Below are positions 1 through 16,680 of a DNA stretch of 64,000 nt, in pieces. A program made the translations under genes and the position numbers. The stretch's first letter is position 1, and each line of letters begins with the position of its first letter. The notes under the pieces are model-generated. The model was not told the DNA's origin, did no database searches, and saw nothing but the letters and a program-made list of their open reading frames with translations. This DNA comes from Bradyrhizobium genosp. L (GTDB lineage Bacteria > Pseudomonadota > Alphaproteobacteria > Rhizobiales > Xanthobacteraceae): NCBI RefSeq assembly GCF_015624485.1, contig NZ_CP061378.1, positions 6,448,001 to 6,512,000 of the forward strand. The letters are read 5' to 3'.

Positions 1-1245
1 GCTTTCACTTAGCGCGATGCTGGCCTTTCCGTCGGAACGCAGGATGGGGAATGAAAGTGCGGGATGCGTTTCGTTAAAGTTTCGAATTCGTACGGCGGTG
101 TCGCGAAAGGCTTTGGCTCCATCAAACGTACATTCCAGTACGCCCTGCTCGGAAAGGATCGCGGAGTTTAGCCGAACTTCGTAAGCAAGGTGCTCGTTGT
201 CATGGTCCTGCTCGGTTCCGGCTTCGAAGTTTGTGGGCGCCACCTCTTCGAACATGATTTGATCGTCATCGAACAACGCATCAACATTCTCTTTGGACCG
301 AAACCAGATCGCCGCCTCGCTATTCAATCCATCGAACGCGGCTAAGGTGGCATTTGGGCTGCCCGTGAGCCAGAACGTGGCTTGCCGTGTCTCGAAGGCA
401 AAGGCTTTTGCATGCAGGCGCCTGCCTGGCTTGGGCGTTGCCGCCAGCAAGCGGCTTTTCTTGCCAGATGCAAAAAGCTTGGCCAGCTTCTTTCCCGCTA
501 GCGTCGCATAGTTTTGCTGCGCAACGACCGTCAACGCGGCGTCCGGCCAGTTTCGGCGCAATCGCTTGAGCAGATCGATGTCTTGATCATAGAAAGGAGA
601 AACGACCGCGATCTTCTTCACCGCCTGCGCCCCAAGCCGGATCGCCATTTGATTCCAGAGCGGACCATCATGCGAGTGCAAGAGCTCGACATCACCTTTC
701 GGGAGCTGGGCATCGCCGCGGAGCCAAGGGAAATGATCCTCCGCCGGCTGGAAGAATTGCTCATCAAGCACTGCACGAAGATGTGGAGCAGCGTGCGCGT
801 ACGATTTCATCGCATCGTAGATTTGCCGAAGGACGCTTTGGGCGTCGCGATCATCTTGCTCGGCGTGATCAGCCCGCGCCGTGAATGTAGAGCAAAGCTC
901 CATGTTGTAGGCAATTCCACCCGTCGTGCAGTTATTGCTTCCAACGAGTCCATCGGCACGTTTGTCGCCGAGCGCGAGATAAAGCTTGGGATGGAAGACA
1001 CCGCCTTTACGGTCTACGGGAATGACGAGATAGCGCCGATTGAATCCTGCGACCAGAAGGCCGCCCTGAAGCAATTCCTGATACCGCCCACGATCCATGA
1101 AGATGATGAGGCGCTCGGCGGATGCGAACGCCTTTCTCCCCAGCATCCGCCTTTCAAAAAACTGCGGATCAAATTCGTACGTGGCGATGAACGCAAAGGT
1201 GCTCGTGCACTTATCGAAGAATTCAAGCAGGTCGAGCGGTTTCAT
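1..1245 (-). CDS. PLD-superfamily protein with two HKD motifs, 3' end beyond window
   Basis: The frame is open from an ATG at 1245 to the window edge, so at least 415 residues are encoded and the end is missing. Two phospholipase-D-type half-sites are readable. The first has HPKLYL at residues 85-90 followed by GSNN at 102-105; the second has HAK at 278-280 followed by GSPN at 295-298. Paired HKD motifs make one PLD active site in nucleases and lipases of this superfamily. The start overlaps the stop of the 600-residue gene as ATGA, so the two are translationally coupled. In this operon a nuclease role is inferred. The unseen C-terminal part could carry a helicase or other domain. It is distinct from the single-HKD DrmC encoded upstream. 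Confidence 0.8.
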   Translation of the reverse strand, partial: MKPLDLLEFFDKCTSTFAFIATYEFDPQFFERRMLGRKAFASAERLIIFMDRGRYQELLQGGLLVAGFNRRYLVIPVDRKGGVFHPKLYLALGDKRADGLVGSNNCTTGGIAYNMELCSTFTARADHAEQDDRDAQSVLRQIYDAMKSYAHAAPHLRAVLDEQFFQPAEDHFPWLRGDAQLPKGDVELLHSHDGPLWNQMAIRLGAQAVKKIAVVSPFYDQDIDLLKRLRRNWPDAALTVVAQQNYATLAGKKLAKLFASGKKSRLLAATPKPGRRLHAKAFAFETRQATFWLTGSPNATLAAFDGLNSEAAIWFRSKENVDALFDDDQIMFEEVAPTNFEAGTEQDHDNEHLAYEVRLNSAILSEQGVLECTFDGAKAFRDTAVRIRNFNETHPALSFPILRSDGKASIALSES

Positions 1246-3044
1246 GGACCCTGCTCGCTCAAGAGTTCCGCAGCAAGCCACGCGTCGCCGTCATCCGTAC
1301 GGGAGTAACCGCTTTCGTCGTCCCAAGAGACGAGGCCAAGATCGGTGAGGATTTGCAGGGCGCTTCGAAGGCGTACATTGAGCGCCCGGGGGTCGGTATA
1401 ATCGGTATTGGTTCCAATGACGGTAACACCGTCGACATGGAAAAGCGGGGCGTTGCCGCCGAAGCCACGTTCGTAGCTCATGGTTTGATGCTGGCGGACG
1501 ACGAAGCGCCAGATCACCCGATCCAGGACTTCGCGGTTGGAGCGGTCGATCCACGAACCACCAAATTCGCCATGCAGCATATCAAGGACGCCGGGCAAAG
1601 CGATGTCGGCATAGGGGTCCTTGACGTGCCGGGTATACCAGTTGTGAAAAGGCCCTGCGACCGCGGCCGGATAGCGAAGCAGGGTCTGATAGAAGAGCAT
1701 CGCCGCAATGGCTATGCCCGCACTGTCGTTGGCCTCACCGCCGATCAGATGCTCTTCGAGGTTACGTTCGGAAAACGGGGATATGATCGGCAATGCCAAC
1801 TTGATGTCCCCGGCCCCTTGCCCGGATTTCAGCAAGGCAACGCCTGCAAACGCTAGCATGTCGCGCGGGGTCAGGTCGAAAAACTCACCCGGCAGATTAT
1901 GCCCGAACAGTTCTGTGAAGCGAGCCGAGATGGCAGGCGATGAAAACTGATTAAGCAGGTCGATGCGTGCGATCCCACCTGGTCGGTCTCGCAGGATTCG
2001 TCCGAGCGCCACTAGAAACGATTGGAGTGCCACGGCAAGATAGCTGTGGGAATGATAGGCCCGCCACCGCTCGGCAATATCGTTCAGTTCTTTAGGAAAA
2101 GTGACCGCGATGGGTTCTGGCGTCTCCTCCCCAACGAGGATTTCGCCGAAATAACAAATGTCGCTGAAGATCGCATTGTCGAAGGATACATCCAAAGCCT
2201 GCGCGCGGCCAATGCATTCGAGCACCAGAAGCAACGACATTCGGCGTCGCCGGTGACTGCCCGTCGCCCGGAATCCATCGAGGGCAAAAAACATACACCG
2301 CAAAACGTCACGGTCGAATACCGCCTTCCCTTCGATTTCGCAGAGGCCGGCCCGCGAGCCGAATTGCTTCAAGACGTCGGAATCAACGAACTTTTTCTGC
2401 GCCCAGCCCTCGGTCACGTATTTGGTGCGGCGAACCGATTGCGAGAATGCGTGAGCTAGGCGCTTCCCCAAGGACGAGAGCTCGGCGACTTCAATAGCCT
2501 GCACCGATTCATCCAGTTCGTCTGTATCGACCGTTGCGTCCTCTTCGACCTCGTCGCTCTCTGTCTTGAAGATACCGAGATTGATCAAGGAGCCCTTGTA
2601 CGCCGCGCCGAACTGGCCTTCGGCGGCTTTCAGGTGCCGCCACGCGAGTAGGTCATAGGATTTCCTTTTGCTTTTTGCCAAGGTCGATGCCGGGTCCGAG
2701 CCGCCAAGCGCCCCGCCCTCGCATGCTCTTCCGTCGTGGTGCAACACGGCTCCCAGCACCATGGCGCGTTCTCTGGCAAGGACGCCCGGGACACGCCCGC
2801 GGTCCTTCGATGTTCCCTGCTCGCTTTCCCGGTAATCTTCGAAAGCCCACGGGAAGAACGAATAATACCGGGCGCGCGGCGTGATCGACGTGATGCAGTG
2901 CAACAGTTCATTCGCGAGCCTGGCCGATACGCGCAGATTCAGGCCCAGCGGGTCGGCAGCGCTGGCGGAAGGCAACTCCTTATTCCAGCGGATGAGCTGG
3001 ATAACATCAGACGGCTTGGTGATCTGGTACACGTACCACCCCAT
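1242..3044 (-). CDS. Uncharacterised 600-residue protein of the DISARM-like operon
   Basis: I do not recognise the family. The protein is soluble, with no signal peptide or membrane segment. The N-terminus has a conserved-looking stretch around residues 33-68 (PLGLNLRVSARLANELL, then ITPRARYYSFFPW). An acidic insert rich in D and E lies near residues 160-185. The last 70 residues read like a small winged-helix (LRSALQILTDLGLVSWDDES). It starts at an ATG 23 bases after the HEPN-like gene, without a clear Shine-Dalgarno sequence, and ends in an ATGA overlap with the two-HKD PLD gene. The tight coupling suggests that the two products act together. Function is unknown; a defence role is inferred from context only. 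Confidence 0.7.
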   Translation of the reverse strand: MGWYVYQITKPSDVIQLIRWNKELPSASAADPLGLNLRVSARLANELLHCITSITPRARYYSFFPWAFEDYRESEQGTSKDRGRVPGVLARERAMVLGAVLHHDGRACEGGALGGSDPASTLAKSKRKSYDLLAWRHLKAAEGQFGAAYKGSLINLGIFKTESDEVEEDATVDTDELDESVQAIEVAELSSLGKRLAHAFSQSVRRTKYVTEGWAQKKFVDSDVLKQFGSRAGLCEIEGKAVFDRDVLRCMFFALDGFRATGSHRRRRMSLLLVLECIGRAQALDVSFDNAIFSDICYFGEILVGEETPEPIAVTFPKELNDIAERWRAYHSHSYLAVALQSFLVALGRILRDRPGGIARIDLLNQFSSPAISARFTELFGHNLPGEFFDLTPRDMLAFAGVALLKSGQGAGDIKLALPIISPFSERNLEEHLIGGEANDSAGIAIAAMLFYQTLLRYPAAVAGPFHNWYTRHVKDPYADIALPGVLDMLHGEFGGSWIDRSNREVLDRVIWRFVVRQHQTMSYERGFGGNAPLFHVDGVTVIGTNTDYTDPRALNVRLRSALQILTDLGLVSWDDESGYSRTDDGDAWLAAELLSEQGP

Positions 3045-3067
3045 ATCGGCAAAATAGATTTATCAAA

Positions 3068-3664
3068 TCAGCCCCCAAGTGTAGCTGGGCTATCGTCTAA
3101 CCTAAACTGCGGCTTTCCCATCATCCGGGATGCAAGCGTGATAGCAAACCACGCATCCTTGCTGAGTATGTCGCTTGTGAATCGGCCCGTGGCAATTGAG
3201 CGTCGGTCCAAATTGCGATCGTCATCGACATTTCGGAAATGGGTCAACGGATTGCGTAAGGCGGCGAGCTCCTTGAGTTCGTCGATATCATCATTGCTGA
3301 GCATCCCGGCGGCCTGGCAGCGACGAAGCGTCTCGGAAAACTCGATCTTGCTGGGAAGGTTCTTCAAGAGCCCCCCATGCAAAAATGCAGCGAAGAGATT
3401 CTCAATGAGGCTTTGGCACAAAAGGACCGTCGCCACATAATTTCCGTGCACAAACGAGGACCGCGCCTCGACCCACGCATTGTATGTGACTTGCCCTCCG
3501 AAAAGCATCGTTCGGTGCCCGTGCACGTCTCCCAAATCGTTGAGAAAGCGAAAGCGTTGCACTTTGCCGAGAAGATCGTTGTGCAGATCTTCGAGCAAGA
3601 ACCGCATCAGCGAGATATCGCTCACACTGGAGAGAAGGTCACCCTGAGCGTGATCTTCATCCAT
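3068..3664 (-). CDS. HEPN-like protein with RX4H motif
   Basis: This 198-residue, mostly helical protein carries ALRNPLTHFRN, giving R137 and H142 in the RX4H spacing typical of HEPN ribonucleases. In HEPN families this motif sits on the last helix and forms the RNase site of a dimer. Residues 60-95 form a long helix like the first helices of DUF4145-type HEPN proteins. The start at 3664 has a good AGGAGA site four bases upstream and lies 30 bases after drmC. In antiphage operons HEPN proteins commonly act as RNA-cleaving abortive-infection effectors, so that role is inferred here. No MNT-type nucleotidyltransferase antitoxin lies beside it. Assignment rests on the motif and the helical pattern alone. 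Confidence 0.6.
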   Translation of the reverse strand: MDEDHAQGDLLSSVSDISLMRFLLEDLHNDLLGKVQRFRFLNDLGDVHGHRTMLFGGQVTYNAWVEARSSFVHGNYVATVLLCQSLIENLFAAFLHGGLLKNLPSKIEFSETLRRCQAAGMLSNDDIDELKELAALRNPLTHFRNVDDDRNLDRRSIATGRFTSDILSKDAWFAITLASRMMGKPQFRLDDSPATLGG

Positions 3665-3694
3665 GGTATCTCCTATCCCGATTGGAGGTCGCCG

Positions 3695-4258
3695 CTAAGA
3701 GGCTGTAAAAATGTCTAGGAGCGCCTCAACAAGCACGGTAACTGGCGCGACCGCGTCTCCTTCGATCAGAAACCCACATTCAAGATTTTTCTCGCGCGAG
3801 CGATAAAGGAAGTTTGCTGATCCGACATAGGCCGCCGCACCGTCGGCAAGCACGACTTTGGCGTGAAATGTTTCAACATAGGCTTGGCCGTTTGGAAGGA
3901 CGCCGGTAAGTGCATAGTCATAAACGTGGGTCGCCAAACGCTGGAGCCGCTCTCCCCCGAGCCCGCATGAGGTAAGCTGATCGATTCCACGAAGGACCAA
4001 GACTTTGCTGGGCGCGTCCGTGGCATCGAACAGATCGGCAGCCCAAGCTGCGCCCGACGCATCAATATAGGGCGTGATAATGACAAGCCGTTCCCGCGCG
4101 CGGCGCGCGAGATGGAGAAACGCGTCTTTGGTGTCTGTGAGCGTCGTGAACGATGCACCGGCCATTCGCTGGAGCTGATCGCCTATCCGGCTCGGCTCTG
4201 GCGGCAACGTCACCACAAAGCGCGCACGGGCCGACGGTGCAATAAGAGAGTCAGTCAT
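3695..4258 (-). CDS. drmC: DISARM protein DrmC, PLD-domain nuclease
   Basis: The product has 187 residues from the ATG at 4258; an upstream TTG at 4276 is less likely. One HKD motif is clear: H132, K134 and D139 in FHAKVVLADG, then GSAN at 146-149 and E160 in the KNLECGF segment. This is the signature of the PLD-like domain that defines DrmC. One HKD per chain means that the active form should be a dimer. The N-terminal half (residues 50-115) has a Rossmann-like pattern (LVIITPYIDASG, SKVLVLRGID). The gene overlaps the end of drmB by 8 bases. DrmA, DrmB and DrmC are the invariant core of DISARM; DrmC was reported as less essential than the other two. Confidence 0.85.
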   Translation of the reverse strand: MTDSLIAPSARARFVVTLPPEPSRIGDQLQRMAGASFTTLTDTKDAFLHLARRARERLVIITPYIDASGAAWAADLFDATDAPSKVLVLRGIDQLTSCGLGGERLQRLATHVYDYALTGVLPNGQAYVETFHAKVVLADGAAAYVGSANFLYRSREKNLECGFLIEGDAVAPVTVLVEALLDIFTAS

Positions 4259-6506
4259 GTAAGAGCACCGGGTCAAAAAAGCCGATGAGTGGTGGACTCC
4301 CTTGAGGTTCCCAGTTTGGGGCGGGCCCGCCTTTTAAGGCCGACCGCGACAGAAGTTGGTTGCCACCGAGGCACGTGACCTCGGATACCATGATGCAGGC
4401 CGGGCATGCCCCGCCCCGCGTGTCACAGAGCGAGCCCGACCCACATCGCAAGAGCCGTTGATCGAGTAGCCGGTAGAGAAAGTCGTGGGCATGGTTGCGC
4501 CACATCGCCGAGATATTCCCGAGGTCTGGCGTCATGCCTTTGCGATACACCACAAAGGCGAGATCGGCTGGGAAGAGATGTTCGCCGAGCCCGTCGCGGT
4601 CTAATCCGGAAATGTCAGCAAGCGCGTGCATGACCTGGTGCGCCAAGCTGTGAAGGAGAAGATAGACAAAAGCCGTGAGAGAGCGAGGCGCTTGCCCCCG
4701 CCCCTCCCGTTCCTTGAATTCGTCGAGGAACGGACCAAAGTCGGAATAATGTTCGAGATAGATCGCACCAAGTGTCTTGTCCGCCTCGGCATCTGCCTCC
4801 TGCATTCCATTGGCCGCAAGCCAGCGCTTTACCCGACGTTCATCGACTTTGAAGTACAGGGCTTCGTTGCGCTGCTGCGTCACATAGATTGGCCGGCGAC
4901 CGTTTGGCAGCTCGGGAAAGGCATTTAGCCTCACCGGCATCGGGACGCTTCGTCCGTTGAACTCGCGATAGTAGATGGGAGTCGAAGAAACGCGCGTAAA
5001 GCCAAAACTGAACTCGCAAATCGGCAAGCCCCGGATCAGCACGATTTGGTCGAGGCCAGTCCGCCGCAGGAGGTTTCCCGTTGTGTTTTGATACTGAGCC
5101 AGACGGACCGGATCACCGACGGCATCGCAAATCAGGCGATCAGGCTCCATAACATCGATGGATTCATGCTGCGTCCGGCGTTCATGGATGTGCTCCGCGA
5201 CGAAACGGTCGTGCTCAATGGTCAGCCGGATGGGGTCAAACCGACGAGCCCAATTGCCCCGCTGAACCACAGCCGCCGCAAGAGCCGCGCTTTGCACGTG
5301 CCCGCGTTCGACAACGTGCGAAGCGAACCACGCCTCGCGAATTACGTCGGCTTCACGCCGTAGGCCATCAGCACGATCCGTTTGTCCGCGCGCTACCGCC
5401 CGCTCGGCCATTTCACAATGATCGTTGTAGTCATCCCACTCGGCGGCACGGCCAGCGTCAGCCAGCGCCGCCCGAATGTCATCGTCTGAGGGCGAGGCGA
5501 AGGGGATACGATGGATTTCTGCCAAGCGCTGCAACAGATCGGGTTGGCGTTGGGGAAGCAAAAGTTCGACGACGCGGCGATCCCGGAACTCGATGAAGGT
5601 GCCCTTTTGGGGATAGAACGCCGAGTTCGCCCGGTAGGAAACCGGCAGCATATTGACTTCAATGCGTTCGAAATTCCTCCCGGTATTCGCCCGCTCACGT
5701 TCCAGGATTTCAAGCGTCAACGGGTCCGGCTGCTTCAAATCGCGCGGCGATTTGCAGCTGTCGCAGATGAAGCGCCAGTCCGAAAAGACGGGAGCCTGGT
5801 TGCTTAGCGTGAATTCTTGCCCGCCGCACGTACATGTCGTGAGCCGCGTCACGTAGCGGCGATTAGCATCATAATTGTTGCGGTATGGGCTTAAGGGTTC
5901 AAGGTGCCCGGACCAATGCACATAGACGACATCGACTTGAGTCCATCGCGCTTCATGATCACCGCAGCGGGCAGGCAACGGATGGCGCGCTTGGTCGGCG
6001 ATCGTGTCGTACTGGCGGATACGCCCGCAGACCCCGCACCGGTAGACGAGCGGATACGGGATGTAGCCCATCGTGCCCGGGTCACAGAGCTGGAAGATGC
6101 GTCCCCAATCCCGGTCGACGATCTGAGAATTACGGTCGTAGAAAACATCGTCGAGGATGAGTTCAATCGGAACGGTCGCCGGCGCTCTCAAGCCATCACC
6201 ACGCGCAAACCATGTCGAGGCGATCTCCTTCATCCCGTCGAAGATCAGGAGACGTGTGGCGTCGGAAACCTGCGCGTCGCCGCGGTCGATGGGCACCGAT
6301 CGGCAAATTCCCTTTGCTCCTTCCCACGTGAACAGCACGCCCGGGGCGTAGGTCGTCGCAAGTTGCGTACGTGAACGGAACATCACCGGTGGGCGTTGCC
6401 GGCGTTCGGCCTCGGTATCGTCCTGATGCGGGCGGGCTCCCGCCGCCCGGCGCCGGTTGCGCCAGTTTCCCCGACGATTTCCCTGATTTGTGTCGTCGTT
6501 TGTCAT
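4251..6506 (-). CDS. drmB: DISARM protein DrmB, DUF1998 family
   Basis: The product has 751 residues. The N-terminus is basic and low-complexity (NRRGNWRNRRRAAG). Zinc-ribbon-like cysteine pairs occur near residues 155-185 (CGVCG, then ARCGDH) and 225-265 (TCTCGG, then CDSC). The C-terminal DUF1998 region (about residues 610-740) has LLHSLAHQVMHAL and a cysteine cluster, CGSGSLCDTRGGACPACI, typical of the family. DrmB pairs with DrmA; the published complex binds DNA and is thought to act at the phage DNA end or a 5' overhang. The start ATG shares one base with the drmA stop (TGATG), so the two are coupled. No key residue appears missing. Confidence 0.88.
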   Translation of the reverse strand: MTNDDTNQGNRRGNWRNRRRAAGARPHQDDTEAERRQRPPVMFRSRTQLATTYAPGVLFTWEGAKGICRSVPIDRGDAQVSDATRLLIFDGMKEIASTWFARGDGLRAPATVPIELILDDVFYDRNSQIVDRDWGRIFQLCDPGTMGYIPYPLVYRCGVCGRIRQYDTIADQARHPLPARCGDHEARWTQVDVVYVHWSGHLEPLSPYRNNYDANRRYVTRLTTCTCGGQEFTLSNQAPVFSDWRFICDSCKSPRDLKQPDPLTLEILERERANTGRNFERIEVNMLPVSYRANSAFYPQKGTFIEFRDRRVVELLLPQRQPDLLQRLAEIHRIPFASPSDDDIRAALADAGRAAEWDDYNDHCEMAERAVARGQTDRADGLRREADVIREAWFASHVVERGHVQSAALAAAVVQRGNWARRFDPIRLTIEHDRFVAEHIHERRTQHESIDVMEPDRLICDAVGDPVRLAQYQNTTGNLLRRTGLDQIVLIRGLPICEFSFGFTRVSSTPIYYREFNGRSVPMPVRLNAFPELPNGRRPIYVTQQRNEALYFKVDERRVKRWLAANGMQEADAEADKTLGAIYLEHYSDFGPFLDEFKEREGRGQAPRSLTAFVYLLLHSLAHQVMHALADISGLDRDGLGEHLFPADLAFVVYRKGMTPDLGNISAMWRNHAHDFLYRLLDQRLLRCGSGSLCDTRGGACPACIMVSEVTCLGGNQLLSRSALKGGPAPNWEPQGSPPLIGFFDPVLLHD

Positions 6507-9500
6507 CAGGGTGCCCTCGCCTGCGCGTCAACGTCGGTCTCGGCAACGCTTCCCCGCTGTTGACGGATGGCACGCATAACCCGGACTAAGTCATCTTGAT
6601 CGATCGTACGGCGCCCTTGCGTTACGCGGGCATCGAACCCCGCAGCGGCAATCATGCCGGCCTCATCGACATCGCGCAACGAAGTCATTGGCGGTTTGAA
6701 CGGAGCGGCAGAGTCTTCCCAATATTCGTAAAGACGGAGTGTGGTGTCGAAATTCCGGACACTGGCAGTGAAGCGGGAGACTTCTTGCTCCACGAGTGAG
6801 CGGTACAGCTCGGCGTAGATCGGCCTACCAAGTCCCTCTGACCCACGGCCTTGGAAACCGATAGCGCGCAAAACGAAGTCGCCAAGCTCTGCCGCGAACC
6901 CAGCCGGGTCTCGGCGAATGAGGGCTCGGATGGGGCTGATTGTCTCGAAGCAATCGGTCCCTGCTTTGGCCGAATCCGCTGCCCGGACGAAGGATTCGTT
7001 CTCCCGCATAACGGCCCATGTCTGGACCAGCGACGCCAACACGCGCCGAATTGCGTTTTCAGCCCATCGCTCGACGGCGGGAGGCGCAATCATACGCTCA
7101 AGGAAGCGATGGAAGATGTCGTGGGTTTCGACGACATAGCGGTCGCGCCTGCTTTGCGGAGTGGGAACAAGCATGACGAAGCCGACATGCGTTCGGCCAA
7201 CGCGGCTCGATGCCTGGATGTATTCAGCGATGTCGGACGGAAGGCCCGCAAAGAACATGCTGTTGAAGCGATCGACGTCAACGCCATGGCTTATCGCAGA
7301 GGTCGCCACGATGCTCCGAAGCTGACCTGCAAGGGGCGGATAGGGCGCGCCGGAATGGCCAGCTTCAGCCTCCACCATGATTTCCTGAATTTCCTTCATA
7401 TCGATGCCGCCCGAGATCAGGCGGCTCACGAACCCATCGAGCGTTTGATGACGTGTGCGATGACGCAGGCGTACAGCAGAGTCGAGGGCGTCCATGACCT
7501 GGTCGCCACCCTTCTTGTTGGTGACGTAAGCCAACGCTATGCGGTGAAGATCGATCAGCGCGAAAATTTCGTTCGCGCGCCCGTCCTGCATCGCGCGTTG
7601 GATTGCATCGCGCCGCCAACCGCTTCCTTCGTCGGCCCCTTGCTGGTCAGCCAGCGCGTTCGCTGTGGCGGCCCGGGTTGCAGGCTCAAGCAAGCCTTGC
7701 CAAACGTCCGTGATGATCGAATGAAACGCGCTCAGGACCGCGACCGCGGTTATGGTGTGCGTGGCATCGTTGGTCATGAGCGAAACGAATAGTCGCATCC
7801 ATGGCGACGTGCGTTCCGGGGCCTCGTAGAGAGGCAAGCGGCGCTCCAGATCGACGCGCGCCGGATTTTCGCGAGGCGCCGGAGCGGGTTCAGCAAAAAA
7901 CGATCGATAGATATCTGGACCCGGACAGGGAAATCGCAGCGGAGCCCGTTGATAAAGCACCTCAAGTTGCCGCTCCGGATTAGAAATCGTGGCCGTGGCG
8001 GCAATGATTTTGGGAGTGCGCGGACCTCCTGCCCTGCCCCCGGCCCAGATGCGGGAAACATGCAACCTGTCCCCAGCGAGTTGCGCGATCTCAGCAAAGA
8101 CCCCGTCGAGCAAGCTGTCAAAAAGACCGCTAAACGTTCCAAGGCTCTCCTCAAGAAGGTGTGCTTCGTCCTGAATAATCAGCGAGGGAAATGGATCGAA
8201 AAACACTGCTCGCCCGTGATCGAATGCGGGAACCACCGGTTCATATCCGTCACCCGAGAGCCATGCAGCAATATCGCCTTCGTTCGGAGGCGACGCGAGG
8301 TGACCTGTTGTGCCAATACCGCGTGCCAAGCCGAACATGCCGATGAGCTGACGGATGGTCGTTGTGCGCTGCCCAAGCATCGCGAGCTTATCGATCGTTC
8401 CCAGTACGATCGAAGGCGCCCGTGCATAGATTGTGTCGTCCGTTAGCAGGAAGGGCAGCGGCGTTCGACTCGCATGGGCACGGTTGAAGGAGCACCGATC
8501 ATTGAAACAGACAATACCGAGCCGACGTGCCGTTGGTCCCTCGGCTTCGAAGCGCCGCAGGCCGGTCGCAGCACCGCAGCATGGACATTGAGGCACCTTG
8601 TTATAGGCGGCGCGGAATTCGCGGTAGCGTTCGGCCGCACGACGCGCATCGGCGTCGGTCCCGTCAGCGCCCTCCTCTAGGTTTCGGTCGTCTGGATGGT
8701 CGGCATCGTCCGCCCGGGGCACGATAGCCGGAACGTAGGAATAGCGATTTGGCGTATTGTTACCGCCGACCCAAAATCCGATTTCAAACGGCCAGCCACC
8801 GACGCGTCGATCGATACGAACGAGTTCGGCAGCCGTTACAAGGCGCAACAGCCGTTGTCCTTGTTGAAGGGTTAGCAAGCGCAGCGGATAGCGGATCATC
8901 GCGGTGACGCCGCGCGTCTTACCCCGCAGGCGATCGAGGAACATGGAGAAGATCAAGGTTCCGTAGAATGCCTCTGATTTTCCACCGCCGGTCGGGAAGT
9001 AAAGCAGACTTGCTGCCGCTTCGTCCAAGAGAGGATCAAACCAGTCGCGATATTCTTCCATGCGTGACGCGAAGGTCGGCACATGGGCAAGGATGAAGGC
9101 GAGTTGGAAAAGTCTCCACCCCCGTTGGGGATCGCCGCGATCACGATTGAGGAAGCTTTGATTGGTCAGAAGCCAAGCACGGTAGGGCGCAGCGCGGAGC
9201 TCCAAAGACGCCCGTTGCTGCTCACTCGCTTGCGCCAACGCTCGGTAAGCCTCTTGCGATTGGCTCAGCAATCGAATGCCGCGCTCGATGTAGCCTGCTT
9301 CGCGCCGTTGATCACCCAAATCGCGCTGTAAGCGTTGGCTTTCCATGTCGGCTTCTGCTGGATTTAAACCCTCGCGGACGGCTCCCCTTAGCCTTGCCTC
9401 TTCGTTACCGATCCAGTCGAGGTAAGCCTGCGGAATAGAGAGGAGATCAAGGACGGCACGCGCTTCCGAGGCTAACTCGGCGAAAGCCACGGGAGCATCG

Positions 9501-10894
9501 GGCGCCCGCGGCACAATCCGTGGCTGGACGAACCGGGGCGACCATGTCGTCCGCAGCGTGAGAAGGTCTTCGGCCTGCCGACTTGACACGCCGCAATTCA
9601 AACCGATTGCGGCATAGTGCATAAAATGCCTGAACCGATAGGATGGCTCGACGCGATCAAGGCGCAAGGCCCGATGCACATCCGCGGGAAGCGTTACGGC
9701 CAGCTCCGTCCTGAAAATGACCTCGCAGTGCGTAAACGCGTCTCGCCGTGAAAGCTCTGGCGACCCATTGTCGAGCATGATGCGCACGGCTACCCGCGTG
9801 GCATCAACAAAGTCCGGCGTCCGGTCGAGCTGAAGAGCCACGCCGGCAATCGCCGGTAGTAAATCAGGCAGCGACGGAGGCGTTTGCGCAACGCGCTGCC
9901 TGTATCCAGTCCAGGCAGCTTCCGAAATCACGTCTTGGGGCTGAACGCGTACGTCGCGCCAAACCTGCTGTAATCCTTCTGCCGAATTGAGCCACACGGC
10001 GACTTGCTGGAGCGCACTGTCGCGCATCGCTGCGGAGTATTCGGCAATACGGGTGGCAAGCTCTGATCCCTCGGCATCGATCTGCCAGATGAACGGCGCA
10101 AAGGTGAGGTCTATTCTTCGCCATTTGGCAGGAGCGTGGACAGGTTCTAAAAGGCCGAACGGCACCGAACGCCCGCGCTGCAGCAACCGCCCGATACGAA
10201 GCTGTGCAGCATGGTCGTCTTGACCATCCGCAGCGGCTTGCTCGTCGGCCTGCGGCTGAGGCTGAGGCTGAGGATTCGCTCCTTCGTCTCCGTCCTGTGC
10301 ATTTGGATTCAGGAGCTGGTCATCGCCTCGTTGAAACTCGATGCCCTGCTCATGATACGCCTGACGGCGGACCTCTTCGAGGATGGCTTGCCGCTGCTGG
10401 CGAACGCGCTGGCGCTGCTCCGGATTGAGGTTGGGCCAGTCGGGCGTTGCCACGCGGGCGGCGGCAAACCGCTCGCCGCGAAGCTGACGGAACCTCGCAT
10501 CGACGGCCGCCTGAACAGCGGCTCGCAGCTTAAAATCAACGTCAAGGCTCAAGGCTTCGTCGGCGAGCTCAGCCCAGTCGGGTAGGACGCGGACGTACAC
10601 CGAGAACGAGGGAGTGATCGTCGATTGGCCCGCTGCATTCGCCGCAACATGGAAATCCATACCAGAAGCGGCGATCCGAATGTCGGTGGTCTCGTCGTCC
10701 TGGCCAGTCGGGTCGAAACGCGGCAGCAATTGCCCGGACACAATCGAACGGCGCGGTGTCCTGCCAAAAAGAACACGCCCTTCGGCATCGCTGCCTGAGA
10801 CCCGCGCGATTGTCATGTTGACGAGCGCGTTGCAAACGCCTTCCTTGAGCTCTTGCGAAACCGCCGATAGTTGCGCTGCACTAAGCCCGTTCAC
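6506..10894 (-). CDS. drmA: DISARM protein DrmA, superfamily 2 helicase
   Basis: This large protein has about 1462 residues. Helicase motifs are intact: Walker A FPTGGGKSEAF near residue 635, a zinc ribbon CPCC...CFNDRC between motifs near 785-815, DEAH in IIQDEAHLLEE near 905, motif III AATATIS, and motif VI QASSRVGRTHVG near 1225. The long N-terminal half without motifs is usual for DrmA. The longest frame begins at a TTG at 10936. A GTG at 10894 is preferred because GAGCGAGG lies five bases upstream and it leaves only a 14-base overlap with the preceding gene. DrmA supplies the ATP-driven motor of DISARM. Gene order and the DrmB overlap support the assignment. Confidence 0.88.
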   Translation of the reverse strand: MNGLSAAQLSAVSQELKEGVCNALVNMTIARVSGSDAEGRVLFGRTPRRSIVSGQLLPRFDPTGQDDETTDIRIAASGMDFHVAANAAGQSTITPSFSVYVRVLPDWAELADEALSLDVDFKLRAAVQAAVDARFRQLRGERFAAARVATPDWPNLNPEQRQRVRQQRQAILEEVRRQAYHEQGIEFQRGDDQLLNPNAQDGDEGANPQPQPQPQADEQAAADGQDDHAAQLRIGRLLQRGRSVPFGLLEPVHAPAKWRRIDLTFAPFIWQIDAEGSELATRIAEYSAAMRDSALQQVAVWLNSAEGLQQVWRDVRVQPQDVISEAAWTGYRQRVAQTPPSLPDLLPAIAGVALQLDRTPDFVDATRVAVRIMLDNGSPELSRRDAFTHCEVIFRTELAVTLPADVHRALRLDRVEPSYRFRHFMHYAAIGLNCGVSSRQAEDLLTLRTTWSPRFVQPRIVPRAPDAPVAFAELASEARAVLDLLSIPQAYLDWIGNEEARLRGAVREGLNPAEADMESQRLQRDLGDQRREAGYIERGIRLLSQSQEAYRALAQASEQQRASLELRAAPYRAWLLTNQSFLNRDRGDPQRGWRLFQLAFILAHVPTFASRMEEYRDWFDPLLDEAAASLLYFPTGGGKSEAFYGTLIFSMFLDRLRGKTRGVTAMIRYPLRLLTLQQGQRLLRLVTAAELVRIDRRVGGWPFEIGFWVGGNNTPNRYSYVPAIVPRADDADHPDDRNLEEGADGTDADARRAAERYREFRAAYNKVPQCPCCGAATGLRRFEAEGPTARRLGIVCFNDRCSFNRAHASRTPLPFLLTDDTIYARAPSIVLGTIDKLAMLGQRTTTIRQLIGMFGLARGIGTTGHLASPPNEGDIAAWLSGDGYEPVVPAFDHGRAVFFDPFPSLIIQDEAHLLEESLGTFSGLFDSLLDGVFAEIAQLAGDRLHVSRIWAGGRAGGPRTPKIIAATATISNPERQLEVLYQRAPLRFPCPGPDIYRSFFAEPAPAPRENPARVDLERRLPLYEAPERTSPWMRLFVSLMTNDATHTITAVAVLSAFHSIITDVWQGLLEPATRAATANALADQQGADEGSGWRRDAIQRAMQDGRANEIFALIDLHRIALAYVTNKKGGDQVMDALDSAVRLRHRTRHQTLDGFVSRLISGGIDMKEIQEIMVEAEAGHSGAPYPPLAGQLRSIVATSAISHGVDVDRFNSMFFAGLPSDIAEYIQASSRVGRTHVGFVMLVPTPQSRRDRYVVETHDIFHRFLERMIAPPAVERWAENAIRRVLASLVQTWAVMRENESFVRAADSAKAGTDCFETISPIRALIRRDPAGFAAELGDFVLRAIGFQGRGSEGLGRPIYAELYRSLVEQEVSRFTASVRNFDTTLRLYEYWEDSAAPFKPPMTSLRDVDEAGMIAAAGFDARVTQGRRTIDQDDLVRVMRAIRQQRGSVAETDVDAQARAP

Positions 10895-13646
10895 CTTGAC
10901 CTCGCTCTTCGGTTTTCTCCTGAACCACGCCCACAAAATCTTCAGCCGCCGCTTTTAGCCTGCGGATATCCCGCACGCGTTCCGGATTGCTGGACTGGGC
11001 CGCATAGTTGTCGATCAAGATTGTTCTGTACGCGTCGTGGAAACTGATCGCTGCACGCAAGCGGCTTGTGCGCTGGGCGATGACGGCCCACGTCCAAAAC
11101 CGCGCCGCGATGGACTCGGTTACGCCCAATGCCTGCATGAAAGCCATAAAGGTCGGTCGTTCTCGCGGCGCATGCGGCACCACGTCGTGCAACGGAACTT
11201 CAAGTTGACCGCGCAAATTGATCCAATAGCTCGCGCGCTGCACGGTCACGGCAGGGATATTCATAGCCGCGACGAGCACCGCAAGCTTGGCGGCATCAGA
11301 CACTCCGCTCAGCCGCGAAAAGCGCTCCAAAACGAGCTGATGATAGTCTCGTATCTCTTCGGCTGCCCGCACCGTGATGTTGAGTAACGGCCGGGCCATT
11401 TCAAGGAACGCGTCGCCGATGACGCAGATGCGGTCTCCTGCCTCAACGTCTTTAGCCTCGCTCTCCGTGAAAATGGGTACCGCTCGGGATCGATCAAGGA
11501 GAATCAGCTTTGTGCCAGGGCGCGCAATGACGATTTGGTCGCCCGAAAGCCTGAACCGGATAGTCGGCTGATTAGGACGTACAGCGCCAGCAAGGTTGAC
11601 GACACTGCTCGCGGGAAATTCGACATCCTCTCCTTCGTAAACGGCAGAGGTTTCCATGGCACCGGAGGCCCGATGCACAGCGGCACCAGCCTTCTCTGCA
11701 AATCCCGAGACCCGCTTGTGGATTGCGGACAGTTGCGGGTATGCCAATAGCCGACCGGCATCGCGTGCAGCGCTGGCGAGCGTGTCGCTGTCAGCGAGGA
11801 TAATTAGGCTTTCCGGCAGCCATGGGCGCGCTAAGAGGGATAGTATTTGGCCCCGCGTGGGTGCGACGCAGATGAGTGTCTTGATTTGATTGCGCTCGGG
11901 GGACGATAACTTCGCTAGGTCATTCAAGGTTTCCTTGTCGAGAAGGAGAAGCATGTTCTTCTCGATGCGGGCTCCGATCTGTTCACCGATTTCTGCATCC
12001 TTGCGAAGAACGTAGGAGGCAAAATCGCTCAGCATGTCATTGCGAAAGAGAAGTGCCGTTCGTGAACTTGCGCGCACGAACTTCTTGACAACGTCTTGCA
12101 GCAGCGGCGCCATCGGCGTTAAGAGCGCGGTATTGCCCCAGACGCGTTCAACATTCCTGCAAAGTTCCGAGCGCGTCGCATTGTTATGCTGTGCCCATGT
12201 CGCGACGCTGGCTTTAAGTTCTGCAATAGCGCTACCAACCCGGTATGAAGCCAAGAGGTCAGCCGCGGCCAGGCTTCCTGCCTCTCGTTCAATATACGCG
12301 GAGAAATCACTCCGCGAGCCCGGCAAGGACGCGCAACGTCGGAGGATGCCGCCAAGACGGTACAACAGCTCGCTGGCAAGTCCATCACCAAGATCCTTCG
12401 CTGCGCGGGCCTCGGCGCGAATGCTCTTCAACAGGCTCTCAACATCTCCAGAAAAACCAATCGCATCCTGTCGTAAAACCCCGGAATACGTGGCCGGAGG
12501 CGGGGACGCTGCGACAATCAGGTCCGAGGCTTGCCCGAAAATTATGTCGGACGACACAGGCTTTGATCGGCCCTTGCCTGCGGCCTCGCCGCGCAAGGTT
12601 TGAAACCGCAGTCTATCAAAAGTCCAAAGGTCATCCGTGAGCGCCAGCACGGCAACGCCGCCAACGTGGCGTTCAAGTTCGGCAAGGAAGGATTGGACCC
12701 GGCTCTCCCAGTCGCGCCCTAACCGATTACGCCCTGTCTGAGAGAGATCGAGCAATACAATATCAAGCTTTCTCCGTAGCGCCTTTAGCGAGGCAGGAAC
12801 GTTGTCGGCGCCTCTCATGCCAAAGAGATAAAATCGTGCGGTTGCCGGATCGTCGGCCTGGCCTGATCGGCTGATATCGCGCAAGTCAGTCTTAGATTTC
12901 ACTCGCCAGAGAAGAGGTTTTCTACCATCGCTTCCCGAGCAAGGACCGGAAGGAAGCAATTCGTCCAGGCAGGGGTGTTGAAATTCGTCGTAGGTGTTTC
13001 CGTCCAGTGCTTTGCCGGTCAGTGTTTTTGTGCGCGCAACCGCCTTGTGGTAATCGGCCAGCGCTGGGTCTTCCCCTTGGCGTGTTGTCCTAACTTGATG
13101 CTGGGTGTGCAAGCGGCCTACCGCTTCCTTGTCCACGTATATCCTTCGAAGGGAACGGTGGACGCTAGTGGCATAGGGGTAGATGAGGGCCCGCATTCCT
13201 AACGGTGGACCTCGCGCATCGAGCGCATCGTGCTTGATCAATGGCGTCGCCGCGTTGTCCGCAAGCGTCATGAAAGCGACGATGGCCGCCGGGCTGGCTT
13301 CGAACTCGGGCCAACACAAGATTGGCTCGCGCGCCTTCTCCTCTATGCAGCGCAGCGCGATTTCGACTAGGCGTTGGTATGGCTCGCTAATTGAAAGCCG
13401 TACTGTCTCACCGGCGCGGGAGAACGGGATACCTACAAGAGCCGTGCGATATGCGGCTGACGACCGTACGGGCCGCGCGGCAATAGCTGCGCGCTCAGCC
13501 TCGGATTTGGCCGCTTGTTCTGCCAACTGGCGCGAGCGAGCCTCAAGCTGTTGTTTGCGTGCCGAAGCAGCCTGCTCCGCGCGCTCACGATGTGACGGAT
13601 GCGGCACATGCGGATCGCGTTTCGGATCAAAGCGGCCGTTCTTCAT
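10881..13646 (-). CDS. Large DrmE-like protein of the DISARM-like operon
   Basis: The product has 921 residues and no Walker motif that I can find. The first 60 residues are charged coiled coil rich in A, E, Q and R. The middle contains Rossmann-like strands (LDIVLLDLSQTG near 290, LICVAPTRGQ near 595, LIILADSDTLA near 615) reminiscent of a degenerate helicase fold. The C-terminus has a small beta segment around AGDRICVIGD and then an all-helical region. Its position beside drmA and its size match DrmE, the class 2 DISARM component of unknown function, but I cannot prove homology from sequence alone. The start overlaps the methyltransferase stop (ATGA). There is no SNF2 helicase here, which argues against it being DrmD. 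Confidence 0.6.
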   Translation of the reverse strand: MKNGRFDPKRDPHVPHPSHRERAEQAASARKQQLEARSRQLAEQAAKSEAERAAIAARPVRSSAAYRTALVGIPFSRAGETVRLSISEPYQRLVEIALRCIEEKAREPILCWPEFEASPAAIVAFMTLADNAATPLIKHDALDARGPPLGMRALIYPYATSVHRSLRRIYVDKEAVGRLHTQHQVRTTRQGEDPALADYHKAVARTKTLTGKALDGNTYDEFQHPCLDELLPSGPCSGSDGRKPLLWRVKSKTDLRDISRSGQADDPATARFYLFGMRGADNVPASLKALRRKLDIVLLDLSQTGRNRLGRDWESRVQSFLAELERHVGGVAVLALTDDLWTFDRLRFQTLRGEAAGKGRSKPVSSDIIFGQASDLIVAASPPPATYSGVLRQDAIGFSGDVESLLKSIRAEARAAKDLGDGLASELLYRLGGILRRCASLPGSRSDFSAYIEREAGSLAAADLLASYRVGSAIAELKASVATWAQHNNATRSELCRNVERVWGNTALLTPMAPLLQDVVKKFVRASSRTALLFRNDMLSDFASYVLRKDAEIGEQIGARIEKNMLLLLDKETLNDLAKLSSPERNQIKTLICVAPTRGQILSLLARPWLPESLIILADSDTLASAARDAGRLLAYPQLSAIHKRVSGFAEKAGAAVHRASGAMETSAVYEGEDVEFPASSVVNLAGAVRPNQPTIRFRLSGDQIVIARPGTKLILLDRSRAVPIFTESEAKDVEAGDRICVIGDAFLEMARPLLNITVRAAEEIRDYHQLVLERFSRLSGVSDAAKLAVLVAAMNIPAVTVQRASYWINLRGQLEVPLHDVVPHAPRERPTFMAFMQALGVTESIAARFWTWAVIAQRTSRLRAAISFHDAYRTILIDNYAAQSSNPERVRDIRRLKAAAEDFVGVVQEKTEERGQGERA

Positions 13647-15271
13647 GCGGTGAGCTTCTTTTTTGCAAGAAATCCTCGTGCATAGGCTCGCTCGACGGCC
13701 GCCTCGCTCAAGCCAAGTGCCTCAACCGCCTCTGCAAGAGCTTCCGGCGCGGGCAAATCCAAACTGCGAAGCAAATTCGCGGAAACGCTCGCGGTACCAG
13801 AAAGCTGACGATAGCGTGTGTCGACCGCAGCCGAATTCAGAAGAAAGCATAGTGCGTTGAGCGCCGCGACGTTCGGGCCCGTTATAACAAGCGTGTGGTT
13901 CTCGGTGACGAAGCCACCCCACTTCTGGATAACGCTCGGCGAAACGCGGGCTGCGACGAGGCGACGCGATTGGGCGCTATTAGTTGTTCTTTGAAGGACG
14001 ATGGCATTCGTCCTCACGATTCCCGAGGACTCCTCGTCGAAACGTACGAAGTCGATGCCGTTGCCCCGTTTCGCCTTGGGAAAACAGAATGCGCCCGACC
14101 GAATGTTGCGCGCCCACACCAATGGCATGTCGAGCTTGGCACTTCGCCTCTTCGACATGCGTTCAAGTTCGCGATTCCAAACGAAGTAGCCGACGCGCAA
14201 AAATGCGCCATAGTCGGCGAGCGTTGCGCCGCCAATTGCCAATCCGGGCTGCTTGCCTGTCGACATCCAGGCCTCTTCGGAATTGGCAGGCAACGTTGTC
14301 GCAAATGTCGATTTGAACGGTCCGAAGCCGGTTACGTTGCCAAAGGAGACGGCGCGGGCTGAGCGGTGTTTGGTGCCAGCACGAGCGACCACGATTGACA
14401 CGTCCTGTGTAACGTCAACGAACACATCGTTGCGCGTCGTAACAGAACCGAGGGTCAGTATTTCTCCCTTGTCACGCATGTAGCCGCGCAATTTTCCATA
14501 GAGCGGTCCGGCCATGAAACTGGATGGAAGAACGAGAGCGACCAAACCACCGGGCTTAGCCAGACGAAAGCAGCGCTCAGCGAACAGAGCATACTTATTG
14601 ATATGCCCAGGATGACACACGTCCCTCCACGCGTCGCCGCGCAACGCGTCCGCCGAGATCCGTCCGTAAGGCGGATTTGCAATGACCAGATTGTAGGTTG
14701 TCGCGTGCCGAGCTCTTAGCGCGTCGCGAACCTCCACCACCGACCCAGTAGCAATGACGCCGTCGGCGCGGTCGGCAATGAGTGCCTCCGAGAGCCGCGC
14801 GAGCCCCCGGTCAATCTCAATCCCATGTAACCGGCGTAAAATATCTTTTGGTGACGCTCCAAGCTCACGCATTTCGCCGGCCAGCGTAGACAGAAACGCG
14901 GCGCCCCCGGCCGCTGGATCAATCGCCGTGTGCCGGAGCGGATCGAACCCTTGCTCGCGGACGAGCCGGATGAGCGCTTTCGAAAGATTGGGCGGCGTAA
15001 AATATGCTGCCTGCGCACGCCGCACGGCAGGCGAGAGCAGCAATGTATAAAAAGTACCGACCCAATAGTGTTTCTGGTCGATGCCGAGTCTTGCCAGACG
15101 CGAAGCAAACTCGGACAGCAATTCCTCATCTGGCTCACCTTCCAGCAAGCCGAGGCAAATCCGAACGCGCCTGAGCGGTGTTAGATCGTTCGTACGAATA
15201 ATTTCCAGCGCGCCCTTTCGAGCCAATACGAGCAGCTCTCGGGCGTGAATGATTCTTCTTTCGACCCCCAC
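13643..15271 (-). CDS. DNA amino-methyltransferase (N6-adenine type) of the DISARM-like operon
   Basis: The product has 542 residues and starts at a GTG behind an AGGGGGAGG tract. SAM-dependent methyltransferase motifs are clear: AAYFTPP at residues 88-94, motif I AIDPAAGGAAFL at 116-127, and the catalytic motif IV NPPYG at 199-203, which marks amino methylation (N6-adenine or N4-cytosine) rather than C5-cytosine. The C-terminal half resembles the target-recognition part of Eco57I-like enzymes. It is the first gene of the operon. In DISARM the methylase marks host DNA as self. Class 2 DISARM normally has a C5 enzyme (DrmMII) and class 1 an adenine enzyme (DrmMI), so this enzyme is class 1-like beside a class 2-like partner. 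Confidence 0.85.
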   Translation of the reverse strand: MGVERRIIHARELLVLARKGALEIIRTNDLTPLRRVRICLGLLEGEPDEELLSEFASRLARLGIDQKHYWVGTFYTLLLSPAVRRAQAAYFTPPNLSKALIRLVREQGFDPLRHTAIDPAAGGAAFLSTLAGEMRELGASPKDILRRLHGIEIDRGLARLSEALIADRADGVIATGSVVEVRDALRARHATTYNLVIANPPYGRISADALRGDAWRDVCHPGHINKYALFAERCFRLAKPGGLVALVLPSSFMAGPLYGKLRGYMRDKGEILTLGSVTTRNDVFVDVTQDVSIVVARAGTKHRSARAVSFGNVTGFGPFKSTFATTLPANSEEAWMSTGKQPGLAIGGATLADYGAFLRVGYFVWNRELERMSKRRSAKLDMPLVWARNIRSGAFCFPKAKRGNGIDFVRFDEESSGIVRTNAIVLQRTTNSAQSRRLVAARVSPSVIQKWGGFVTENHTLVITGPNVAALNALCFLLNSAAVDTRYRQLSGTASVSANLLRSLDLPAPEALAEAVEALGLSEAAVERAYARGFLAKKKLTA

Positions 15272-16398: not shown

Positions 16399-16442
16399 TG
16401 GCGCTCCCTAGGGGAATCGAACCCCTGTTTCAGCCATGAGAG
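16399..16442 (-). other. 3' half of a tRNA-Glu(CTC)-like gene, probable att scar
   Basis: The minus strand reads an anticodon loop CTCTCAT (anticodon CTC), a half-stem GGCTG, a full T arm AGGGG-TTCGATT-CCCCT, the acceptor strand AGGGAGC and the terminal CCA. The matching 5' half (GCTCCCT, D arm) is absent: homology stops at the loop. A 44-base 3' tRNA fragment is what site-specific integration into a tRNA gene leaves behind. It lies about 210 bases from the integrase remnant. Confidence 0.7.
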
Positions 16443-16614: not shown

Positions 16615-16666
16615 TGGCTTGCTGGGATAGGATTTGAACCTATGACCTTCAGGTTATGACCCTGAC
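16615..16666 (-). other. 3' half of an initiator tRNA-Met-like gene, probable att scar
   Basis: The minus strand reads a stem TCAGG, a loop containing CAT, the stem CCTGA, AGGTC, and then a T arm ATAGG-TTCAAAT-CCTAT followed by CCCAGCAAGCCA. The T loop TTCAAAT and the AACCTGAAGGTC stretch match initiator tRNA. No 5' acceptor strand or D arm precedes it. The acceptor end is slightly degenerate. It has the same orientation as the Glu fragment 170 bases away, suggesting a second, independent integration scar. Confidence 0.65.
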
Positions 16667-16680
16667 GATTGCCGAAAGGG

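What the first reader, a model, noticed from the sequence alone, without database searches (positions are those of the whole stretch)
1..15271. DISARM-like operon with a mixed class 1 / class 2 composition and three extra genes
Core genes drmA, drmB and drmC are clear from motifs. Published class 1 DISARM adds DrmD (SNF2 helicase) and an adenine methylase; class 2 adds DrmE and a C5-cytosine methylase. Here an NPPY amino-methylase stands with a 921-residue DrmE-like protein and no SNF2 protein, and the operon goes on with a HEPN-like protein, a 600-residue unknown and a two-HKD PLD protein. Near-continuous start/stop overlaps show that it works as one unit. This may be an undescribed DISARM subtype.
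Basis: partly seen in the sequence, partly recalled or inferred. Interest (0 to 1): 0.85.

Follow-up and report, generated by a model that had tools for sequence, protein, structure and literature searches.

The report
Five-gene DISARM variant beside separate genes
A soil bacterium carries a likely anti-virus gene set that belongs to the DISARM kind but mixes parts of its two published classes, and the three genes that follow it look like separate neighbours rather than part of the set.

Summary
All eight genes exist, but not as one recurrent set. The first five (N6-type methylase, 921-aa protein, DrmA, DrmB, DrmC) form a recurrent unit: methylase-921-DrmA-DrmB in this order in 22 of 22 loci found through the 921-aa protein. 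In a separate search through DrmA, 9 of 10 strong relatives have a 921-type gene (three of a far, Afipia type) and 10 of 10 a methylase. These DrmA form one clade apart from 13 comparison rows. No curated profile calls the 921-aa protein DrmE, but its C-terminal third aligns with the DrmE C-terminal region (score 50.4; 200 shuffles at most 26.2). So 'mixed class 1/class 2' holds for five genes: DrmE-like plus an N6 methylase, no DrmD, no C5 methylase. The last three genes look separate: found behind drmC in 0 of 22 and 0 of 10 loci; the 600-aa/PLD genes form their own pair in 12 of 12 contexts (ZacA/ZacB-like, no ZacC); the HEPN-like gene is scattered, once beside the methylase (L055). A Hydrolase-TM-type defence gene follows: stacked modules. 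New DISARM variant; eight-gene subtype not supported.

The parts
13643..15271 (-). 542-aa N6-type DNA methylase (NPPY at residue 199)
   Evidence: Pfam N6_Mtase 5.3e-12 and Eco57I 8.6e-11; PADLOC MTase_II 6.7e-99, no DrmMI among the best 25 of 49; motif; first of the five-gene unit in 22 of 22 loci
10881..13646 (-). 921-aa DrmE-like protein, C-terminal third homologous to the DrmE C-terminal region
   Evidence: no Pfam or PADLOC match, NCBIfam only one at 0.056; 88 relatives; profile-profile 90.5%, 164 columns, score 50.4 against the DrmE region
6506..10936 (-). DrmA, SF2/YprA-type helicase, 1476 aa, Walker A at 650, DEAH at 923
   Evidence: PADLOC DrmA 1.2e-90; NCBIfam DISARM_DrmAS 9.2e-114, below cut-off; solved DrmA 7s9v_A 6.8e-49; motifs
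4251..6506 (-). DrmB, 751 aa, three CxxC pairs
   Evidence: PADLOC DrmB 3.3e-17; NCBIfam DrmB_fam 5.6e-11, below cut-off; no Pfam match; 7s9v_B only 0.38
3695..4276 (-). DrmC, 193-aa PLD nuclease with one HxK motif
   Evidence: PADLOC DrmC 1.7e-11; Pfam PLDc_2 2.6e-10; HxK at 138
3068..3664 (-). 198-aa HEPN-like accessory (R137-N-P-L-T-H142), separate module
   Evidence: no profile hit; R137 119/119, H142 118/119 in the aligned family rows; 509 homologues; linked to the five genes in one other locus, L055
1242..3044 (-). 600-aa ZacA-like protein, separate two-gene module
   Evidence: PADLOC ZacA 0.0016 over residues 27-78 only; PLD relative next to it in 12 of 12 other contexts read
1..1281 (-). 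PLD-like protein with two HxK motifs, ZacB-like; continues 914 bases beyond the window, 731 aa in all
   Evidence: PADLOC ZacB 1.7e-21 on the window's part; full gene in L002 14086-16281; motifs

Best explanation
Window 3695-15271 is a five-gene DISARM variant: N6 adenine-type methylase, a very divergent DrmE, DrmA, DrmB and DrmC. Most likely mechanism: the methylase marks host DNA. DrmA-DrmB is an ATP-driven helicase complex held shut until it loads on unmodified single-stranded phage DNA; the acidic, poorly conserved linker at DrmA 201-245 is a candidate for the gate. Opened DrmAB strips or blocks the DNA, and DrmC, a PLD nuclease, may cut it. The DrmE-like protein, made between methylase and helicase and without a family-wide catalytic motif that I could find, is probably a scaffold or sensor of the complex. 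Shown here: gene content, order, recurrence, a separate DrmA clade, remote DrmE homology of one third. Inferred: every biochemical step, by analogy with the solved Serratia DrmAB. The 198-aa HEPN-like gene and the 600-aa/PLD pair (ZacA/ZacB-like) are independent defence-type modules placed directly behind it, perhaps co-transcribed, followed by a fourth, a Hydrolase-TM-type gene: a stacked defence island, not one machine.
For: Methylase-921-DrmA-DrmB in order in 22 of 22 loci, DrmC in 19 of 22, last three genes in 0 of 22 (L008 and L009 have identical DrmA). Ascertainment by DrmA instead: 11 of 382 same-family genomes, own included, have a strong relative (E<1e-100); of the 10 others (9 fetched, one earlier as L044) 10 have a methylase, 9 a 921-type protein, 10 DrmB, 8 DrmC, 0 any of the last three. 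Five of the 28 genomes with weaker DrmA matches: DrmD-like gene 5 of 5, 921/DrmE 0 of 5. Same layout in Polaromonas, a betaproteobacterium, and Afipia. DrmA: 31 rows one clade, SH-aLRT 100. DrmE C-region: score 50.4 against a maximum of 26.2 in 200 shuffles. 600-aa/PLD pair without DISARM core genes nearby in 12 of 12 contexts. Hydrolase-TM-type gene directly behind. DrmAB mechanism read in passages of PMC9142583.
Against: No curated DrmE profile matches the 921-aa protein, though PADLOC DrmE also misses a Haliscomenobacter protein that carries Pfam DrmE_C. Alone, the Haliscomenobacter and Rubrobacter DrmE regions do not align (0.2%, 5.4%), and the Afipia-type subfamily alone scores 26.9, no better than the best shuffle (26.2) or the DrmA control (26.0); three of the nine 921-type proteins are of that type. 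Residues 100-640 show no DrmE similarity. The tree was the quick method and joins long branches. One DrmA relative (G568, short DrmA) shows no 921-type gene, and in three the methylase matches weakly (3e-12 to 1.5e-15). The 198-aa gene stands beside the methylase in L055. A 198-aa homologue (P0227) and a 91% 600-aa homologue (P0095) are listed with the same longest contig length, 16562. Polaromonas pPNAP03 carries the five genes and a 600-aa/PLD pair on one plasmid, about 64 kb apart, and G661 a pair and a DrmD-type DISARM about 36 kb apart. GC3 does not separate the modules (0.60-0.67 against 0.64-0.69). No function was tested.
Confidence: 0.78

Rival explanations
1. The eight genes are one composite system: DrmAB serves as the helicase for the ZacA/ZacB-like pair in place of the missing ZacC, and the HEPN-like protein is a back-up RNase that stops growth.
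For: All eight genes lie head to tail on one strand with gaps of at most 30 bases. The ZacA/ZacB-like pair here lacks ZacC, which is a helicase in Azaca (passage in PMC12278908). A distant ZacA/ZacB-like pair in L054 stands behind a DrmD-like SNF2 gene. The 198-aa gene stands beside the methylase in L055. Polaromonas carries both modules on one plasmid.
Against: The trio follows drmC in 0 of 22 and 0 of 10 other loci. The closest pair loci (L047, L048, L052) have no DISARM core genes, and no helicase appears among the seven of their neighbours that were scanned.
Confidence: 0.12
2. The five genes are ordinary class 2 DISARM that has swapped its C5 methylase for an N6 methylase; DrmE has merely diverged.
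For: DrmE-like protein directly upstream of drmA as in Halobacterium. The nearest rows in the DrmA tree are four: L063 and L073, which have DrmE or DrmE_C proteins, and L083 and L064, in which no DrmE was seen.
Against: No DrmE profile match and no C5 methylase in the operon; own clade with a long stem, with an N6-type methylase in the loci read.
Confidence: 0.3
3. The 921-aa protein is a new family unrelated to DrmE that merely occupies the same operon slot.
For: No curated profile match; residues 100-640 show nothing; the Afipia type alone is at control level.
Against: Profile alignment at 90.5%, far outside 200 shuffles; four subfamilies align to about the same stretch; seven unrelated families give at most 1.3%.
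Confidence: 0.12

Closest known systems
DISARM class 2 (type II)
   Same: DrmE-type protein directly before drmA, then drmB and a PLD gene (Halobacterium L063)
   Different: Here an N6 methylase instead of a C5 methylase; DrmE-like protein only recognisable by remote profile; DrmA in another clade
DISARM class 1 (type I)
   Same: drmABC core and an adenine-type methylase
   Different: No DrmD; the methylase is 542 aa with no DrmMI among its best 25 PADLOC matches (two class 1 controls of 1342 and 1378 aa hit DrmMI at E 0)
Azaca (ZacA, ZacB, ZacC)
   Same: The 600-aa/PLD pair matches ZacA weakly and ZacB clearly
   Different: No ZacC helicase beside the pair here
ARMADA (PMC12458937)
   Same: YprA-type helicase and an N6 methylase
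   Different: No BrxHII/SNF2 helicase; DrmB is a separate gene; PADLOC PglX is not the methylase's best match

Membership tests
DISARM, broad sense | helicase DrmA and DUF1998-type DrmB in separate adjacent genes | tested here: met
   the split is given as the DISARM trait in PMC12458937 section 8; Pfam gives no DUF1998 match for DrmB
DISARM, broad sense | PLD nuclease DrmC after drmB | tested here: met
DISARM, broad sense | protects against phage | not testable with these tools
   needs plating tests
DISARM type I | DrmD (SNF2 helicase) | tested here: not met
   none among the eight proteins nor among six ORFs of the 14 kb behind the operon
DISARM type I | DrmMI methylase | tested here: not met
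   not among the best 25 of 49 matches, the other 24 were not shown; controls hit DrmMI; BLAST to three class 1 methylases at 0.094, 7.1 and none
DISARM type II | DrmE by curated profile | tested here: not met
DISARM type II | DrmE homology by profile-profile comparison | tested here: met
   C-terminal third only, 90.5%, score 50.4 against shuffles at most 26.2
DISARM type II | DrmMII (C5 cytosine methylase) | tested here: not met
   the only methylase in the operon is N6-type
ARMADA | BrxHII/RapA-like helicase next to the YprA helicase and PglX-like methylase | tested here: not met
   no such second helicase in the operon
Azaca | ZacB | tested here: met
   1.7e-21
Azaca | ZacA | tested here: inconclusive
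   0.0016 over 52 residues; distant relatives 1.5e-5 and 0.0017, another relative none
Azaca | ZacC helicase | tested here: not met
   no ZacC among six ORFs behind PLD; the only helicase there is a strawberry-notch type about 10 kb on
HEPN | Rx4-6H motif (recalled) | tested here: met
   R137/H142 conserved in 119 and 118 of 119
HEPN | HEPN family profile | tested here: inconclusive
   no hit; a relative, P0210, gives HepT-like 0.11, another, P0238, none

The most novel reading that the evidence does not exclude
The five genes are a third DISARM class, defined by a compact N6 methylase and a DrmE that has drifted beyond curated profiles, spread over Alpha- and Betaproteobacteria, in which DrmE rather than DrmD works with an adenine mark; and in this genome it has captured a helicase-less ZacA/ZacB pair that uses DrmAB as its motor.
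Probability: 0.12. Interest if true: 0.75.

Novelty: new variant of a known kind. Interest (0 to 1): 0.55.

Why it matters
The published scheme ties DrmD to DrmMI and DrmE to DrmMII (PADLOC definitions, PMC9252829, passage), adenine and cytosine methylases respectively (PMC9142583, passage). A clade that pairs a DrmE-type protein with an N6 methylase suggests that helper and mark are exchangeable. It lets one ask directly what DrmE does; PMC9142583 names the interplay of DrmAB with DrmD and DrmE as a task for future studies. By those definitions the locus is neither type I nor type II, so such systems, also on rhizobial plasmids, may be under-counted.

Tried and rejected
Rejected: the eight-gene subtype (last three genes behind drmC in 0 of 22 and 0 of 10 loci). 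Rejected: 921-aa protein = DrmD (no helicase profile and no Walker A pattern). Rejected: an active site in the 921-aa protein: the invariant H183, R186, D198, H200, K252, D254 of the close clade are not kept across 23 rows of four subfamilies. Rejected: a tRNA-flanked island with both ends: the tRNA-like fragment at 16400 has its only other copy, within 3 mismatches, at 1.54 Mb of the genome. Led nowhere: structure prediction (switched off); PDB profile searches with the 921-aa family (three matches, best 0.15) and the 600-aa family (none); the 921 family in viral contigs; DrmE_fam in genomes of the phylum (0 of 200). The Lactiplantibacillus protein in the DrmE slot (801 aa) aligns with neither DrmE nor the 921 family. 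Composition does not tell the modules apart. The greedy ORF table drops genes with long overlaps and was not used for counts.

Rows left out or weak: L019 gave no DrmA row in the tree; L007 and L020 entered as fragments of 926 and 803 aa. The tree labels 'class 1' and 'class 2' are mine, from annotation and neighbours: of the seven 'class 2' rows only L063, L073 and L076 have a DrmE or DrmE_C protein by profile, and class 2 is not one clade in the tree; for L081 no DrmD lay in the stretch read. Of the 15 places with a 600-aa relative beyond the window's own (9 genomes plasmids, 2 viral contigs), contexts of 12 were read; G626, G645 and H4 were not. In L077 only residues 17-103 of the 600-aa protein and 287-725 of PLD match, so that copy looks truncated. 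Of the 28 genomes with weaker DrmA matches only 5 were opened. Two of the ten strong DrmA relatives are, by equal contig length, records seen before (G560 = L011, G662 = L062), so the two searches overlap there; the Afipia-type profile was built from L062 itself.

Papers: PMC12458937 abstract, sections 3, 5 and 8 and passages; PMC9142583, PMC10952713, PMC11090510, PMC9252829, PMC10270631, PMC7205518, PMC12278908, PMC12629846, PMC11680222 passages only; others search listings. Ofir 2018 is not held, so class definitions come from PMC9252829. Supplementary tables were not readable, so I cannot say that no table of PMC12458937 lists these DrmA proteins. That this variant was not seen in print rests only.
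Full report
What was checked. The window is 6448001-6512000 of a single-contig 7.40 Mb genome. Eight minus-strand ORFs fill 1-15271. The last runs off the window and is 731 aa in the genome. GC3 of the eight is 0.60-0.69; of 31 reference ORFs from 23-64 kb, some perhaps not genes, 18 are at 0.81 or more.

The five-gene unit. PADLOC and NCBIfam recognise DrmA, DrmB and DrmC as distant members, all below NCBIfam cut-offs. DrmA also matches the solved Serratia DrmA (7s9v, 6.8e-49). The methylase is N6-type with NPPY. A profile of the 921-aa family (42 rows) was used for the one scan of the genome collection: 22 loci, all Pseudomonadota by their titles, alphaproteobacteria in all but one that says only Proteobacteria (classes partly recalled). 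In 22 of 22 the order is methylase, 921, DrmA, DrmB; DrmC follows in 19 (not found in L008, L009, L019). In the nearest relative, L003, the next ORF after drmC is on the other strand. The loci reach 2.0-2.9 kb past the core in most cases, enough to show the 198-aa gene and much of the 600-aa gene had they followed; L012 reaches only 0.85 kb.

A second ascertainment. Because those loci were found by the 921-aa protein, I searched 382 genomes of the family with DrmA instead. 39 match, of which 11, own included, have E<1e-100. The ten others were read: methylase 10 of 10 (in G568 behind drmC; weakly similar, 3e-12 to 1.5e-15, in three), 921-type protein 9 of 10 (six by the 921 profiles or tblastn, three of the Afipia type), DrmB 10 of 10, DrmC 8 of 10, any of the last three genes 0 of 10. 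In five loci with weaker DrmA matches a DrmD-like gene was present in 5, a 921/DrmE protein in 0. The layout also occurs in Polaromonas, Afipia, Rhizobium johnstonii with the methylase last, and Sphingomonas and Sinorhizobium plasmids.

Is the 921-aa protein DrmE? No curated DrmE profile matches it, while PADLOC recognises Halobacterium DrmE at 1.8e-122. Profile comparison joins the 921 family to its distant relatives (99.9%) and to the Polaromonas protein (98.9%), and weakly to the Afipia one (18.1%); a profile of the Polaromonas protein also finds the G789 member of the Afipia type at 4e-13. Whole 921 against haloarchaeal DrmE gives 29% in one place, inside the region that Pfam calls DrmE_C. 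Restricted to the C-terminal regions, the match is 90.5%, 164 columns, score 50.4; 30 and 200 column shuffles reach at most 18.0 and 26.2, a reversed copy 13.8, seven unrelated families at most 26.0 (1.3%). The four 921 subfamilies align to about the same stretch, with 37.9, 31.9, 37.0 and, at control level, 26.9 for the Afipia type. Haloarchaeal DrmE alone gives 84.5%, Rubrobacter alone 5.4%, Haliscomenobacter alone 0.2%. I take remote homology of this third as shown for the 921 family proper, the rest as open. Weak intein-type hits in one 921 relative and in two DrmE-slot proteins (0.01-0.075) hint at a Hint-like fold, unproven. No catalytic motif is kept across the family.

The DrmA tree. 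44 rows, quick method: the 31 rows of this set form one clade (SH-aLRT 100), the four rows I labelled class 1 another (99). The nearest rows are L063 and L073, with DrmE or DrmE_C proteins, and L083 and L064, without. Long branches meet in this tree, so 'third class' against 'offshoot of class 2' stays undecided.

The last three genes. The 600-aa family is rare: 3 of 385 genomes of the class, 8 of 391 of the family, own included. In the 12 contexts read (of 15 places found) a relative of the PLD gene stands next to it in 12 and a DISARM core gene by tblastn in none, apart from a weak helicase hit to DrmA in L042; L054 holds a DrmD-like SNF2 gene. On a larger scale both kinds can share a replicon: about 64 kb apart on Polaromonas pPNAP03, about 36 kb from a DrmD-type DISARM in G661. 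PADLOC names the PLD gene ZacB (1.7e-21) and the 600-aa protein weakly ZacA. ZacC, a helicase in Azaca (PMC12278908, passage), was not found behind it. The 198-aa protein has a conserved R-N-P-L-x-H, 509 relatives, and occurs in 3 of 382 family genomes, own included. It stands in L055 before the methylase, elsewhere with other genes such as a DUF262 gene and HipA. Directly behind the PLD gene comes a HAD hydrolase with a TM part that PADLOC lists as Hydrolase/Hydrolase-TM, so the place is a stack of defence-type modules.

How it probably works. By analogy with Serratia DrmAB (PMC9142583, passages): the methylase marks self; DrmAB, gated by a loop, loads on unmodified single-stranded ends; a PLD nuclease may follow. 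In this clade DrmA has, at window residues 201-245, an acidic stretch of low conservation (0.28 and 0.36 against mostly 0.5-0.7 around it; 28 rows, extracted segments of 35-90 residues), near the position of the Serratia trigger loop (176-232); the two N-terminal parts do not align by sequence, so that equivalence is inference. The DrmE-like protein as scaffold or sensor is inference.

Verdict. A real, recurrent DISARM variant of mixed class composition; the eight-gene subtype is not supported; the trailing genes look like separate modules.

Noticed in passing
L002 12250-13716 (window about -2750 to -1284): Directly behind the operon a 488-aa HAD hydrolase with a TM part, PADLOC Hydrolase 2e-81 and Hydrolase-TM 1e-29, another defence-type gene.
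   Followed up: partly
window 16400-16441: A tRNA-like 3' fragment (by eye); its only other copy in the genome, with one mismatch, lies at 1.54 Mb. A second tRNA-like stretch is at about 16630-16670 (by eye).
   Followed up: partly
L002 1-9156 (left of the window): Element-like genes further on: Ku, ArdC-type anti-restriction, ParB-like (below cut-off) and a strawberry-notch helicase.
   Followed up: partly
L061 and L057 (Polaromonas pPNAP03): The five-gene unit and a 600-aa/PLD pair lie on the same 172 kb plasmid, about 64 kb apart.
   Followed up: no
L047 11228-13422 and L048 7583-10047: In two genomes the PLD relative is split over two frames at different places; damage, phase variation or sequencing error.
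   Followed up: no
L054 6973-15961: Sphingobium plasmid: DrmD-like SNF2 gene, 587-aa gene, ZacA-like and ZacB-like genes in one row; DISARM and Azaca parts may share helicases.
   Followed up: partly
L055 17597-23308: drmB of the Sinorhizobium americanum plasmid copy is interrupted by IS66-family genes.
   Followed up: no
L053 5259-8720 and L062 18328-21733: An ATP-binding protein plus S8 peptidase pair stands near two of the five-gene loci.
   Followed up: no
L128 9357-11105: In genome G629 the 198-aa-type domain is part of a 583-aa open frame.
   Followed up: no
L077, L078: Relatives of the 600-aa/PLD pair lie on two IMG/VR viral contigs, the L077 copy looking truncated.
   Followed up: no
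window 10881-13646, residues 588-600: The 921-aa protein has a stretch (KTLICVAPTRGQ) that resembles a helicase motif Ia; a lead by eye only.
   Followed up: no
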